64,000 bases of DNA from Ariolimax columbianus (Eukaryota > Mollusca > Gastropoda > Stylommatophora > Arionidae): the NCBI GenBank assembly GCA_036924085.1, contig JAVGWX010000005.1, positions 99,482,672 to 99,546,671 on the forward strand, given 5' to 3'. Below the pieces are notes generated by a model, which did not search any database, had not been told where the DNA came from, and saw only the letters and a program-made list of their open reading frames with translations. Position numbers and translations under genes: made by a program. Below are positions 12,028 through 60,175 of the stretch, piece by piece (the stretch's first letter is position 1; each line of letters starts with the position of its first letter).

Positions 12028-12035
12028 CTGAAAAT

Positions 12036-12625
12036 CAAACATCAGATCAGTCAGTCTATCATATGGTCACTTCAAACATCAGGTCAATCAGTCTATATGG
12101 TCCCTTCAAACATCAGGTCAATCAGTCTTTATGGTCACTTCAAACATCAGGTCAATCAGTCTATATGGTCCCTTCAAACATCAGGTCAATAAGTCTATAT
12201 GGTCCCTTCAAACAACAGGTCAATCAGTCTATATGGTCACTTCAAACAACATGTCAATCAGTCTATCATATGGTCACTTCAAACAACAGGTCTATCAGTC
12301 TATATGGTCACTTCAAACATCAGGTCAATCAGTCTATATGGTCACTTCAAACAACAGGTCAATCAGTCTATCATATGGTCACTTCAAACAACAGGTCTAT
12401 CAGTCTATATGGTCACTTCAAACAACAGGTCAATCAGTCTATATGGTCAATTCAAACAACAGGTCAATCAGTCTATATGGTCCTTTCAAACAACAGGTCA
12501 ATCAGTCTATATGGTCACTTCAAACAACAGGTCAATCAGTCTATATGGTCCCTTCAAACAACAGGTCAATCAGTCTATATGGTCCCTTCAAACAACAGAT
12601 AAATCAGTCTGTCATGTGGTCACTT
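12036..12625. repeat. 34-base minisatellite abutting the 3' splice site of exon I
   Basis: Roughly 17 units of GGTCACTTCAAACAACAGG followed by TCAATCAGTCTATAT; a few units are 3 bases longer (CTATCATATGG). On the transcript strand each unit reads GACTGATTGACCTG..., which contains YTNAY branch-point-like sequence. The first unit, GATCTGATGTTTGA, runs directly into the exon I polypyrimidine tract TTTTCAG. Long open frames in three phases are artefacts of the period. Confidence 0.95.
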
Positions 12626-12824
12626 CAAAATGTCAGTAAATTATATGAAAATGAACATGGTTATACATGTTTGTGGGTGACAGGAGATGAATAGAGAACT
12701 GCAGAGAAACAATCCCTAGTCCCCTTAGTCTTGGATCAATCATGTTCTGGCATCTGCCTAGAGTGGGTTAGAAACTACAGATGCTTATCTCTACACAGTA
12801 CACAAAAGTTGGAGAAAATGTCAA

Positions 12825-26975: not shown

Positions 26976-27094
26976 CTGTGATTGCTTGAACAGTTACTCT
27001 CAGATACCCTTTAACATCTCCCTTGTCGCTGACAATAGCCACACGATGGACCAGAGGTACAGGGTAGAACAGGTTGCTTAGGTAAACAAAGGCT
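26976..27094 (-). CDS. unc-104: KIF1-type kinesin, exon D
   Basis: This 119-base exon encodes [20 protein letters not shown], then [19 protein letters not shown], nearly identical to the animal KIF1 consensus ([38 protein letters not shown]). The acceptor TGGTCAG/AGCC completes R from the AG left by either exon C1 or C2. The donor ACAG/GTAAGAA is in phase 1. It is the shared exon that follows the two alternative C exons. Confidence 0.98.
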
Positions 27095-32479: not shown

Positions 32480-32945
32480 CAATGAGCCCAGGTGAGTTAT
32501 CATTTCATTATGGATTCTGTCTAGCCCAGGTGAGTTTTCATTTCATTATGGATTCTGTCTAGCCCAGGTGAGTTATCATTTCATTATGGATTCTGTCTAG
32601 CCCAGGTGAGTTATCATTTCATTATGGATCCTGTCTGGCCCAGGTGAATTATCATTTCATTATGGATCCTGTCTGGCCTAGGTGAGTTATCATTTCATTA
32701 TGGATTCTGTCTGGCCCAGGTGAGTTATTTCATTATGGATCCTGTCTGGTTCAGGTGAATTATCATTTCATTATGGATTCTATCTGGTCCAGGTGAATTA
32801 TCATTTCATTATGGATCCTGTCTGGCCAGGGTGAGTTATCATTTCATTATGGATCCTGTCTGGTTCAGGTGAATTATCATTTCATTATGGATCCTGTCTG
32901 GCCAGGGTGAGTTATCATTTCATTATGGATTCTGTCTGGTCCAGG
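32480..32945. repeat. 38-base minisatellite within LINE reverse-transcriptase codons, about 12 copies
   Basis: Plus-strand unit GTGAGTTATCATTTCATTATG followed by GATTCTGTCTGGCCCAG. Read on the minus strand it encodes GPDRIHNEMITH, the conserved entry block of the reverse transcriptase. 38 is not a multiple of 3, so the array would destroy the frame and must have grown after the LINE was dead. Confidence 0.95.
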
Positions 32946-35451: not shown

Positions 35452-35775
35452 ATAAACACCAATTGAACCGTCTGCCCATGAGTATACCTCCCAACCAACA
35501 TTAACTGAACCATCTGTCCACTAGCATACCTTCCGACTAACACCAACTGAACAGTCTGCCAACTAGAATACATACCAACTAACACTAATTGAACCATCTG
35601 TCCACCAGCATACCTCCCAACTAACACCAACTGAACCATCTGTCCACTAGCATACCTCCCAACTAACACCAATTGAACCATCTGTCCACTAGTATACCTC
35701 CAAACTAACACCAACTGAACCATCTGTCCACTAGCATACCTCCAAACTAACACCAACTGAACCATCTGTCTACTT
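35452..35775. repeat. 42-base splice-donor-like minisatellite, left block (about 8 units)
   Basis: Units read on the minus strand: GTTAGTTGGGAGGTATGCTA followed by GTGGACAGATGGTTCAGTTGGT. GTTGGGAGGTATG is the exon C2 end plus its 5' splice site. Three units keep GGGAGGTAT exactly; most others keep GGAGGTAT. The block ends where the RTE-like LINE begins and resumes at 38545. Confidence 0.95.
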
Positions 35776-38535
35776 GTATCAGGTCAGGTCAGGTTAGGTC
35801 ATCCCGTAACCGGTGAGGTCGTTGGGGCCCACATGAAGACATCCTCACAAACCCATGCCACCCCTCTCTGTCAGATGTCGCTGCCTGTGACTCTTCTGAT
35901 CAGAGACTGGTCCATTCTTTTATGTTGTCCTCCCATCTCTTTTTGTGCCGGCCTCTTCGTCGTCTGCCATGCACCTTTCCGTAGAAGATTGTATTTGCAA
36001 GACCATTTGATCTCAATATGTGACCGTACCAAGTGAGTTTCCTTCTTTTGACAATTGCTAAGAGGTCTTCGAAAGGCCCTATTGCTGTTGTAATTCTATC
36101 TCGTATTTCCTCATTTGTAACTTGATCTTTGTACGTGACGTTTAAAAGTTTTCATAAACATCTCATCTCCAAGGCCTGTATCCTTCGTTGAAGGTCAGCT
36201 GTAACTGTCCATGTCTCACACACATAGAGGAATATTGACAGGACCAGTGTACGCATTAATCTGATTTTTGTTCGTAGTGCTAACCGTTTCTCTTGCCAGA
36301 TTTTGTTAAGCCGTGCAAGTGCCGCTATTGTCTGGGCTATTCTGGCCAACACCTCACATTTTGATTCTTCATCACTGACAATCGACCCAAGATATTTAAA
36401 ACGGTCAACCACTTCGAGTTCCTGACCGTTAGCTTTTATCCTGCTGTTGAAGCCCGTGGCGTTGTTGGTCATTAATTTTGTCTTTCCAGCGTTTATCTCC
36501 ATACCATAGTCAAGAGCTGTTTCATTGAGCCTTCTGACCCATTCCTGGAGTTCTGCTTCTGAACCCGCCAACCCATCGATATCATCTGCAAAACGAAGGT
36601 TGGTAATCGTTCGGCCCCCTATCTTGAGAGTACCAACATGACCTCCAAGTGCCTCACTCATAATTCCTTCAAGGAATATATTGAAAAGAGTTGGAGAGAG
36701 TGTACACCTCTGTCTCACACCAATTGATGTGCGAAACCAGTCTCCTCGCCTCCCATTCACAAGAACTAGACGCCTTGTCATACAGGTGTTCAAGGACAGT
36801 TAAAATATTTCCGTTGATATTATTAAACCTCATGGTTGCCCAAAGCGCTTTATGCCATACCCTATCAAACGCCGTCTTAAAATCCACAAACACATGATAC
36901 AGTGTTTGCTGCTGTTCTAGATATTTCTCGCTTAGCAGCCTTAAATTAAATATCTGTTCTGTAGTGCTTCTTCCCTGTCTGAACCCTGCTTGCTCCTTGG
37001 CAATAATGTTCTCTGCTTGGGGTTTCAATCGGTCAAGGATTAATCTAAGCATGACCTTGATAGGGTGGCTGATGAGGCTTATTGTTCTGTAATTTTGGCA
37101 CAGCTTTAGGTTTCCAGACTTATGTAACGGTATAACTATTGATTTCGTCCATAAGTCCGGCCAGTTTCCGGTCGCCCATATTTTGTTGCAGATGTGTGTC
37201 AGGCCTTCCACCACTACCTCTCCACCTGCTTGTAAGAGCTCTGCTGGTATATTCTCCACGCAGGCCGCCTTCCCTCTTCTCAATGTCTTTACTGCTGCAA
37301 TTACCTCTTCCTTCATTATCAATTGGTTATCCTCTATATTTGTTGGTATTGGGGGGATTGTTTTCTCAGGTTCGTTTCTCCCTTCATAGTTATATAGCTC
37401 GGAACAGTACTCTGTCCATCGTGCCAGTACGTCATTTTCCTCAATAAGGCACTTGCCGCTTTTATCATGAATCATAAGATTCCTGCCTTGTCTTGGTGTT
37501 ACCAGTTCTTTGACAACCTTGTATGCTCCTTTAGCATCATTTCTGTTTAGTCTCTCTTCGATGTTTGTGCATTGCTCACATATCCACGCTTCTTTTACCT
37601 CTCTCATCTTTTGTTGTATGGCTTTCTTGACCTCTTTATAACTGCCGACCTCCTCCGGTGGGTGATTGTGTTTTTTCAGTGACCTTCCTTTATCACAAAG
37701 GTCTAGAATGTCTTTGGTCACCCATGGCTTCTCTTTTTTTTGGGTGGCATCCCAGGATCTCTGTTGCAGTATCTATGAGAGCTGCATTAAGAGACTCTGT
37801 AACTGTATCTGTATCCAGTTCCTCTCTGAGAGCCAACAGTGGCGCAAATCTTCCTCCCACCCTTGCTTGGAACACTTCTGTGATTTTTGGGTCCATTAGT
37901 TTGTCCAGGTCAAACTTTAGCCTGGTCACATCCTTCTTTGCGACTCCCTTCAATCGCAGACGCATGGTCATCATAACCAGATCGTGGTCGCTTCCTATAT
38001 CAGCTCCGGGGAAACTTCTTGTTTTGTCGGTGTTGATGCTCGATCGGAACCTCCTCTGGACCAGTATATAGACAATCTGGCTATGCACTTCCTTGCTTGG
38101 GTTATGCCATGTCCAGCGTCTCGACGGCTTGTTTACCCCAAATCTTGCAAATTCTAGGAGTCTGAGGCCCCGGTCATTGGTTTCTTTATTTCCGTATGGT
38201 CCACATGTTCTCCTCCAGTCATGGACTGCATCTTCTCCAATTTTTGCATTCCAATCCCCCTGGACTACCAATATGTCTTTTTTTTTCGTGTATCAAACTT
38301 TGAAGTTGATCATAGAATGCCTCTATTTCACAATCTTCGTAGTCTGCAGTGGGTGCGTAGCACTGTATTATGGTAATATTAAACGGTGCTGCCTTTAGCC
38401 GTAAGATGATAAAACGGCTAGATATTGGGAGGCAACCCAATATGCATCTGGCTGTGTCTTTATGCACCAGTATCCCCACTCCATGTAAATGTTTGTCCTC
38501 CCTGCCACTGAAGTAGAACTTGTGGCCCTCCTCCG
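35775..38535 (-). pseudogene. RTE-like LINE, nearly complete ORF2 with frameshifts
   Basis: Minus-strand pieces in order: endonuclease with IIQCYAPTADYEDCEIEAFY (38360), MVVQGDWNAKIGEDA (38250) and GADIGSDHDLVMM (37990). RT has LRRGKAACVENIPAELLQAG, NYRTISLISHPIKVMLRLIL, EQAGFRQGRSTTEQIFNLR, YHVFVDFKTAFDRVW, FRTSIGVRQRCTLSPTLFNI and NLRFADDIDGLAG (36600), then YLGSIVSDEESKCEVLARIA and LYVCETWTVTADLQRRIQAL. There is no RNase H. The domain set and 3' end in short ACCTG repeats (35780-35800) fit RTE. Frames change near 38240, 37710 and 36700-36790, so it is inactive. It inserted into the 42-base minisatellite. Confidence 0.9.
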
Positions 38536-38544
38536 TGGTAAACT

Positions 38545-38668
38545 CTCCAAACTAATACCAACTGAACCATCTGTCCACTTATATACCTCCCAACTAACAC
38601 CAACTAAACCATGTCCACTTGCATACCTGCCAACTGACATCAACTGAACCATCTGCATACTAACATAC
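38545..38668. repeat. 42-base splice-donor-like minisatellite, right block, abutting exon C2
   Basis: Three units lie directly after the exon C2 donor (transcript sense): donor at 38668, then copies of the GGAG/GTATG or GGCAG/GTATG junction 42 and 82 bases further. The first copied donor is exactly in frame (42 bases with no stop, adding 14 residues); the second, 40 bases on, is not. Confidence 0.95.
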
Positions 38669-38806
38669 CTCCCAACAAGCCTGAACCACGGGAACCGGTC
38701 ATAGAAGGGGTCACCGCCAGTCATACTGTCAATGTTGGGTTCCGGAGATGTTGGTGACAGCTCAGCCTCATTGTGGTACATCTCCCGCATCAACTCTAGT
38801 CGCTGT
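38669..38806 (-). CDS. unc-104: KIF1-type kinesin, exon C2 (alternative to C1)
   Basis: This 138-base exon encodes [20 protein letters not shown], then [20 protein letters not shown] and FRLVG. It matches the vertebrate KIF1 sequence QRLDLMREMYD...[19 protein letters not shown]. The acceptor is CCCATACAG/ACAGCG (completes R from CG of exon B, phase 2). The donor is GGGAG/GTATGTT (phase 2, AG plus A of exon D gives R before AFVYLS). Its last 20 bases are the source or a member of the adjacent 42-base array. Confidence 0.95.
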
Positions 38807-48299: not shown

Positions 48300-48440
48300 C
48301 TTGAAGGAATGAGGGTGCGGAAATTAAAAACATTTTGCTGCCCGCAGGCTGACAGGCAGTGGAATATGTCTTCTTTGGTCTCGGGTGTGTCCGGGGAAAG
48401 GTCTTCATTGTAAACCTCTCGCATCAGAGTCAGTCGGTGT
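48300..48440 (-). CDS. unc-104: KIF1-type kinesin, exon C1 (alternative to C2)
   Basis: This 141-base exon encodes HRLTLMREVYNEDLSPDTPE, then TKEDIFHCLSACGQQNVFNF and RTLIPS. Its first half aligns with exon C2 ([22 protein letters not shown]); its second half does not resemble [14 protein letters not shown]. The acceptor CCTATAG/ACACC is in phase 2 and fits exon B. The donor TCAAG/GTCAGGG is in phase 2 and fits exon D directly. Lengths 141 and 138 are both multiples of 3, so either exon, or both, can be used without frameshift. Protein evidence for its use is lacking. Confidence 0.75.
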
Positions 48441-59735: not shown

Positions 59736-59746
59736 CTGTGGATATT

Positions 59747-60175
59747 GTAGGAGGTGTCAAGAGATGGTAGGAGGTGAGTGTCAAGAGATGGTAGGAGGTG
59801 AGTGTCAAGAGATGGTACGAGGTGAGTGTCAAGAGATGGTAGGAGGTGAGTGTCAAGAGATGGTAGGAGGTGAGTGTCAAGAGATGGTAGGAGGTGAGTG
59901 TCAAGAGATGGTAGGAGGTGAGTGTCAAGAGATGGTAGGAGGTGAGTGTCAAGAGATGGTAGGAGGTGAGTGTCAAGAGATGGTAGGAGGTGAGTGTCAA
60001 GAGATGGTAGGTGTCAAGAGATGGTACGAGATGTGTATCAGGAGATGGTAGGAGTAAGAGATGGTAGGAGTTGGATGTCAAGAGATGGTAGGAGTTGGGT
60101 GTCAAGAGATGGTTAGGAGGTGAGTATCAAAAGATGGTATGAGTTGGGTGTCAAGAGATGGTATGAGTTGCCATG
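59747..60175. repeat. 24-base minisatellite abutting the 3' splice site of exon B
   Basis: Plus-strand unit GTGTCAAGAGATGGTAGGAG followed by GTGA, about 11 near-perfect copies to 60010, then degenerate units. On the transcript strand each unit is CCTCCTACCATCTCTTGACA followed by CTCA, pyrimidine-rich with repeated CTTGAC branch-like motifs, and it leads straight into CCTCCTACAATATCCACAG. Confidence 0.95.

What the first reader, a model, noticed from the sequence alone, without database searches (positions are those of the whole stretch)
35452..38806. A minisatellite made of copies of an exon end and its 5' splice site
Exon C2 ends GTTGGGAG/GTATG. The next ~120 bases of intron, and a further ~320 bases displaced to 35452 by an RTE insertion, are 40 to 42-base units each carrying a GTTGGGAG-GTATG-like junction, about 11 in all. 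The exon end also resembles the unit further upstream (TGGTTCAG before the junction). The array thus seems to have grown from, or into, the splice donor. The first copied donor is 42 bases away in an open frame, so its use would insert 14 residues after RLVGR; the next is out of frame. Decoy donors could change the length or efficiency of this exon, and copy number could vary between individuals.
Basis: partly seen in the sequence, partly recalled or inferred. Interest (0 to 1): 0.78.

Follow-up and report, generated by a model that had tools for sequence, protein, structure and literature searches.

The report
Splice-donor minisatellite in a snail-like KIF1 gene
In a snail-like animal's gene for the nerve-transport motor KIF1, the end of one exon with its splice signal appears to have been copied about ten times into the neighbouring intron, a kind of structure already described in lancelets, and nothing here shows that the copies change the protein.

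Summary
On the minus strand, exon C2 of a KIF1/unc-104 (kinesin-3) gene ends GTTGGGAG|GTATG at 38669|38668. Ten further junction copies follow at 40-42-bp spacing: three down to 38545 (the third cut by an insert) and seven in 35455-35778. A 2.77-kb element with reverse-transcriptase matches, its frame broken, splits the array. Eight of ten copies keep AG|GT. Anchored at the junction, the exon end matches the array consensus far better than chance (1 of 50,000 shuffles; 0 of 3,554 other GT sites). In the 120 listed full-length homologues (of 7,998 matches) the exon end is conserved and runs straight into the next exon, so the array most likely grew from the exon, not the reverse. Closest KIF1 proteins are heterobranch gastropods. 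Boundary minisatellites are known in lancelets as "mirages" (PMC3087553, PMC3902484); my limited paper searches showed no mollusc case. Donor cores in the copies are neither decayed nor extra-conserved, so I read them as neutral. Only the first copy (+42 nt, in frame, about as strong as the real donor) could plausibly lengthen the protein, by 14 residues; its use is untested. Two other arrays here abut acceptor sites.

The parts
38669..38806 (-). KIF1/unc-104 exon C2 (phase 2 at both ends), ending GTTGGGAG
   Evidence: Pfam KIF1B E=2.6e-16 on the C2+D peptide; boundaries read from sequence and homology
38660..38676 (-). authentic 5' splice site GTTGGGAG|GTATGTTAG
   Evidence: U1 duplex -6.4 kcal/mol, matrix score 4.85
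38545..38668 (-). proximal part of the array: junction copies at 38627, 38587 and (cut) 38545
38621..38629 (-). first decoy donor CAG|GTATGC, +42 nt, in frame (would add [14 protein letters not shown])
   Evidence: U1 duplex -7.2, matrix 5.18; frame
35779..38544 (-). retroelement insert, about 2,766 bp (ends by eye, within about 3 nt), reverse-transcriptase domain broken over two frames
   Evidence: RVT_1 in 36669-37772 and 36152-36799; edges
35455..35778 (-). distal part of the array: seven junction copies (35740, 35698, 35656, 35614, 35572, 35530, 35488)
26976..27094 (-). KIF1 exon D, (R)[14 protein letters not shown]..., the next constitutive exon

Best explanation
A tandem duplication took in about the last 20 nt of a conserved KIF1 exon and the first 17 nt of its intron, and then expanded inside the intron to about ten 40-42-bp units by slippage or unequal exchange. 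In structure it is a 'mirage', an exon-intron-boundary minisatellite of the kind described in lancelets, here in what is probably a heterobranch gastropod. A retroelement later landed in the array and decayed. Most likely the array is a neutral by-product, the authentic proximal donor is the one normally used, and the first copy is at most a minor alternative donor. Shown: the array, the junction copies, their match to the exon end, the host gene, the insert splitting the array in phase. Inferred: direction from exon to array, the expansion mechanism, neutrality, normal splicing.
For: Anchored match of exon end to a consensus made from intronic copies only: 1 of 50,000 shuffles, 0 of 3,554 other GT sites. 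Exon end conserved and of constant length in 120 of 120 listed homologues. Unit halves not found elsewhere in the window at close identity: all 10 matches to the exon-like half (up to 7 mismatches) lie in the array, and the intron-like half has 3 matches outside, each with 5 mismatches. Inner units nearly alike (1-2 changes from consensus in the four units 35740-35614), outer ones more changed (4-7), as expected of exchange within an array. Donor core 0.897 conserved against 0.920 for the rest, no sign of selection. Precedent: lancelet mirages, said not to disturb splicing.
Against: Without anchoring, the exon end does not stand out in its own intron (10.0 against up to 10.5). The exon match needs a 5-nt gap, so the TGGTTCAG half is likely, not certain (96 of 50,000 shuffles have such an 8-mer). 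Random synonymous codings of the same peptide reach the anchored score in 1,069 of 20,000. No genome, RNA or related-species DNA could be examined. Nine units are too few to exclude weak selection.
Confidence: 0.72

Rival explanations
1. The first copied donor is regularly used, so the gene makes a second KIF1 form with 14 extra residues after LVGR; the array works as an alternative 5' splice site whose use could change with the array.
For: First copy is in frame and open, its U1 pairing (-7.2 against -6.4) and matrix score (5.18 against 4.85) equal or exceed the real donor, and its 9-mer is identical to exon H's donor. Fish KIF1B proteins carry an 85-residue cassette at the same point, so the protein can take an insertion there.
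Against: No protein (240 listed) has such an insert, but none is this species. The donor core is not more conserved than the rest of the unit. In frame and open by chance alone is not rare (about one in six by my estimate).
Confidence: 0.15
2. An independent minisatellite arose or landed beside the exon and its likeness to the exon end beyond the donor consensus is chance or later exchange.
For: The window is full of minisatellites: 29 merged arrays, 12,537 of 64,000 bases. The unanchored test is weak.
Against: Anchored tests. The exon's last eight bases and first five intron bases are repeated exactly in two of the copies with TTGGGAG|GTATGC, in register from the real junction.
Confidence: 0.1
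3. The array is an assembly artefact of a tandem region.
For: Tandem arrays are hard to assemble and no reads were available.
Against: The nine units compared differ individually, by 1 to 7 changes from their consensus, and the insert is flanked by array in phase on both sides. Copy number may still be wrong.
Confidence: 0.03

Closest known systems
Lancelet 'mirage' minisatellites (globin BflGb6 and BflGb9, Adh3, TnC, PGBD5; PMC3087553 and PMC3902484, passages seen)
   Same: Minisatellite-like tandem copies that span an exon-intron boundary; many, not all, units keep AG/GT; inner units alike and edge units diverged.
   Different: Here a gastropod, a KIF1 gene, and a retroelement inside the array. 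Units are 40-42 bp (150-160 bp in BflGb6, 10-72 bp in Adh3 by that paper). Normal splicing and length instability, reported there, were not testable here.
[quoted passage not shown] ATP2A1 case; PMC4974935, passages seen)
   Same: Duplicated segment carries AGGT from an exon-intron boundary.
   Different: No new intron is seen here; all copies lie in an existing intron.
Tandem repeats at exon-intron boundaries of human genes in segmental duplications (PMC2812944, passages seen)
   Same: Minisatellites at boundaries, with alternative splicing or new introns possible.
   Different: Those are recent primate duplicates with RNA evidence; none is available here.
Polymorphic intronic minisatellite of abalone TSSK1-like (PMC6905558, passages seen)
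   Same: A gastropod intron with a 27-bp minisatellite whose copy number differs between individuals.
   Different: The passages do not say that it spans a splice site.
KIF1B cassette at the same junction in fish
   Same: Inserted at the same LVG^R point and ending in a diverged second copy of the exon end (DPFYDRSPWFILVGR).
   Different: A coding cassette of about 85 residues, not a minisatellite; no evidence of a shared origin.

Membership tests
Mirage (exon-intron-boundary minisatellite) | tandem repeat whose unit spans an exon-intron boundary | tested here: met
   junction copies and anchored exon match; the exon-like half beyond the last 8 nt is likely, not certain
Mirage (exon-intron-boundary minisatellite) | many units keep AG/GT splice signals | tested here: met
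   8 of 10 copies keep AG|GT
Mirage (exon-intron-boundary minisatellite) | regular splicing undisturbed | not testable with these tools
   no RNA of this species; 120 of 120 listed homologues lack an insert, which is indirect
Mirage (exon-intron-boundary minisatellite) | length instability between haplotypes or in the soma | not testable with these tools
   one sequence only
Mirage (exon-intron-boundary minisatellite) | reported so far, in what I read, from cephalochordates | tested here: not met
   nearest KIF1 proteins are heterobranch gastropods; the name is structural, so I still file it as the same kind
Intron gain by AGGT duplication | a new intron bounded by duplicated splice sites | tested here: inconclusive
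   all copies lie inside the C2-D intron and no new exon was seen by homology; RNA would be needed
Regulated alternative 5' splice site | transcripts using the second donor | not testable with these tools
   no RNA of this species found

The most novel reading that the evidence does not exclude
The end of this KIF1 exon is a recurrent duplication point: in fish a copy became a cassette exon ending in the same motif at the same junction, and in this gastropod the copying is caught at an earlier stage, with the first decoy donor already able to add a 14-residue variant. Minisatellites growing out of splice sites would then be a source of new exons and splice forms in a neuronal motor.
Probability: 0.07. 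Interest if true: 0.7.

Novelty: new member of a known kind. Interest (0 to 1): 0.4.

Why it matters
If the reading holds, boundary minisatellites are not peculiar to lancelets, and their claimed harmlessness to splicing can be tested at a strong, in-frame decoy donor 42 nt from the real one. The locus also gives an order of events (array, then insertion, then decay of the insert), and raises the question whether short repeats growing from splice sites are a general source of new exons.

Tried and rejected
Array grown into the exon: rejected as the main reading, since the exon end is conserved without length change in the 120 listed homologues. Lancelet as source: rejected, nearest KIF1 proteins are heterobranch gastropods. 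Distal copies as usable donors: unlikely, 2.9-3.1 kb of added exon with a stop (four of seven distal copies tested). This species' own protein fragments: none recognised (best 69% identity). A solved structure for the C2+D peptide: no match.

Results replaced or corrected: the donors of the other exons were read at coordinates off by up to three bases; only the array rows are used, and one search has the corrected donors. The exon was taken two bases too long; one search uses the right start. The rotation test (2,979 of 5,000 reach three) let arrays cover exons and is replaced.

Paper searches: one search named molluscs (57 papers held three of four terms, 15 listed); some searches were general; named amphioxus; one search was for KIF1 splicing, listing only, and its mouse Kif1a paper (PMC12436618) was not opened. 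From only the abalone paper was opened. Absence of a mollusc case is therefore weak, and most subscription papers are not held.

Full report
What is there. The gene is on the minus strand. A peptide of exons C2 and D matches Pfam KIF1B (E=2.6e-16). tblastn with recalled KIF1A stretches and with pieces of P0003, and reading of splice sites, placed exons a 61384-61316, b 59735-59563, C1 48440-48300, C2 38806-38669, D 27094-26976, E1 25097-25009, E2 17771-17633, E3 17031-16845, F 13341-13251, G 12027-11909 and H 10676-10587. There is no RNA evidence for any of them. The protein search gave 7,998 matches, 120 listed; over exons a-E1 (196 residues) the nearest nine of the 240 proteins compared are from Bulinus, Bradybaena, Biomphalaria and Candidula, at 93.9-94.9% identity. 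The source is therefore probably a heterobranch gastropod; the species is not identified.

The array. Ten copies of the junction follow the real one at 40-42-nt spacing: 38627, 38587 and the cut 38545, then seven from 35740 to 35488. Between them lies an insert of about 2,766 bp (35779-38544) with reverse-transcriptase matches in two different frames, so that domain is broken. The unit resumes in phase behind it: the 5' flank stops at TTTGGAG and the 3' flank starts at TACAAG, some one to three bases of the unit being missing and no clear target duplication seen (by eye). The array is older than the insert.

Is the exon end in the unit? A consensus of nine intronic copies (the cut copy and the real junction left out) was aligned to the exon end, anchored at the junction. 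The exon part scores 12, reached by 1 of 50,000 dinucleotide shuffles of the exon. An upstream exact 8-mer in near register, as TGGTTCAG is here, occurs in 96 of 50,000. With the intron part the total is 21; the best of 3,554 other minus-strand GT sites is 9. An earlier run gave 1 of 20,000 anchored, 5 of 20,000 local, 30 of 20,000 without the last three bases, and 0 of 206 other AG|GT sites. Against: random synonymous codings of the peptide reach the anchored score in 1,069 of 20,000 and the local one in 1,818, so much of the match is what any coding of this conserved peptide tends to give; this fits an exon source but makes the codon-level match less telling. Without anchoring, the exon's last 30 nt score 10.0 in their own 600-nt intron flank (mean 7.5 and best 10.5 in 20 others). 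The junction copy is beyond doubt; the TGGTTCAG extension is likely, not certain.

Direction. The 120 listed full-length homologues all carry WF[RK][LM][VAI]GR (50 of them WFRLVGR) and run straight into the next exon's sequence. Of the 120 listed fragment hits (of 505), 112 spanned the junction by my motif test and 106 of these had nothing between; of the other six, P0129 lacks six residues, P0218 has a cassette, and P0134, P0135, P0221 and P0234 look like frames read into an intron, a judgement by eye; 8 did not span. So 232 of 240 spanned, and none of the 240 has anything like the predicted insert (up to four changes allowed). An exon end so conserved is unlikely to have been given by the array, so exon to array is favoured.

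Do the copies do anything? By U1 duplex energy the first copy (-7.2) exceeds the real donor (-6.4); the second and six others lie at -5.7 to -5.8, and two are ruined (-1.6, -0.5). By a matrix of recalled frequencies the first copy scores 5.18, the real donor 4.85, four further copies 4.18-4.45, and the second copy only 0.43. The first copy's 9-mer equals that of exon H's donor. Its use would add [14 protein letters not shown] in frame; the second copy leads to a stop while reading exon D; the four distal copies tested stop inside the insert. The 13 junction columns are conserved at 0.897 and the other 29 at 0.920, and 33 of 42 circular 13-column stretches, itself included, are at least as conserved. 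So there is no sign that the donors were kept or removed by selection, on nine units. I commit to neutrality, with minor use of the first copy possible.

Surroundings. 29 merged arrays (period 14 or more, at least 2.8 copies) cover 12,537 of 64,000 bases. Three have an end within 25 bp of an exon edge: the proximal part of this one, a 24-bp array 19 bp from exon b's acceptor and a 34-bp array 8 bp from exon G's acceptor. Random placement without exon overlap gives 0.37 on average and three or more in 117 of 20,000. That test counts the array that drew attention to the locus, and counts its two halves as two arrays, so it flatters the excess. In the 432 nt before exon b the only AG is the acceptor's own.

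What is known. [quoted passage not shown] the authors say that regular splicing is not disturbed (PMC3087553, abstract and passages). Similar repeats are noted for lancelet PGBD5, with Adh and TnC cited (PMC3902484, passage). Human boundary repeats in segmental duplications can change splicing (PMC2812944, passages). Intron gain by tandem duplication is discussed in PMC4974935 (passages). Earthworm metallothionein introns hold minisatellites of unknown role (PMC12783039, passages). An abalone gene has an intronic 27-bp minisatellite whose copy number differs between individuals, with no word in the passages of a splice site (PMC6905558). I saw no mollusc mirage; only searched with a mollusc term.

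A side line. The third protein search used a fish KIF1b cassette as query (2,875 matches, 120 listed). 118 of the 120 have LVGS, 69-70 residues, DPFYDRSPWFILVGR and then A(F/Y)VYL; the other two differ by one residue in that motif. This is not a sample, since the query was such a cassette; the named ones are fish. The cassette ends in a diverged copy of the exon end. It shows that the protein can take an insertion there and that this exon end was duplicated in another lineage. A link to the array is speculation.

Verdict. Its kind is known; its presence in a gastropod KIF1 gene appears new within what I could search. Function is not shown, and the neutral reading is the most likely.

Noticed in passing
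59736-60167: A 24-bp minisatellite (59754-60167) abuts the acceptor of KIF1 exon b; in the last 432 nt of that intron the only AG is the acceptor's own, an unusually long AG-free, pyrimidine-rich stretch.
   Followed up: partly
12035-12629: A 34-bp minisatellite stops 8 bp before exon G's acceptor; no exon sequence seen in its unit by eye.
   Followed up: partly
48300-48440: C1 is an optional 47-residue cassette exon; 45 of the 120 listed full-length homologues carry a segment of more than 30 residues at that place, e.g. P0002, P0009, P0071.
   Followed up: partly
38669 (C2-D junction); proteins P0137, P0218, P0241-P0360: KIF1B proteins of fish carry a cassette at this very junction that ends in a diverged second copy of the exon end, DPFYDRSPWFILVGR.
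   Followed up: partly
1-64000: Minisatellites are very dense: 29 merged arrays of period 14 or more cover 12,537 of 64,000 bases.
   Followed up: partly
32486-32945: A 38-bp array in the C2-D intron whose unit holds CAGGTGAGT, a near-perfect donor, but on the + strand, opposite to the gene.
   Followed up: no
48300, 25009, 17633: Three KIF1 donors as placed by homology (C1, E1, E2) begin GTC, an unusual third intron base; they need RNA support.
   Followed up: no
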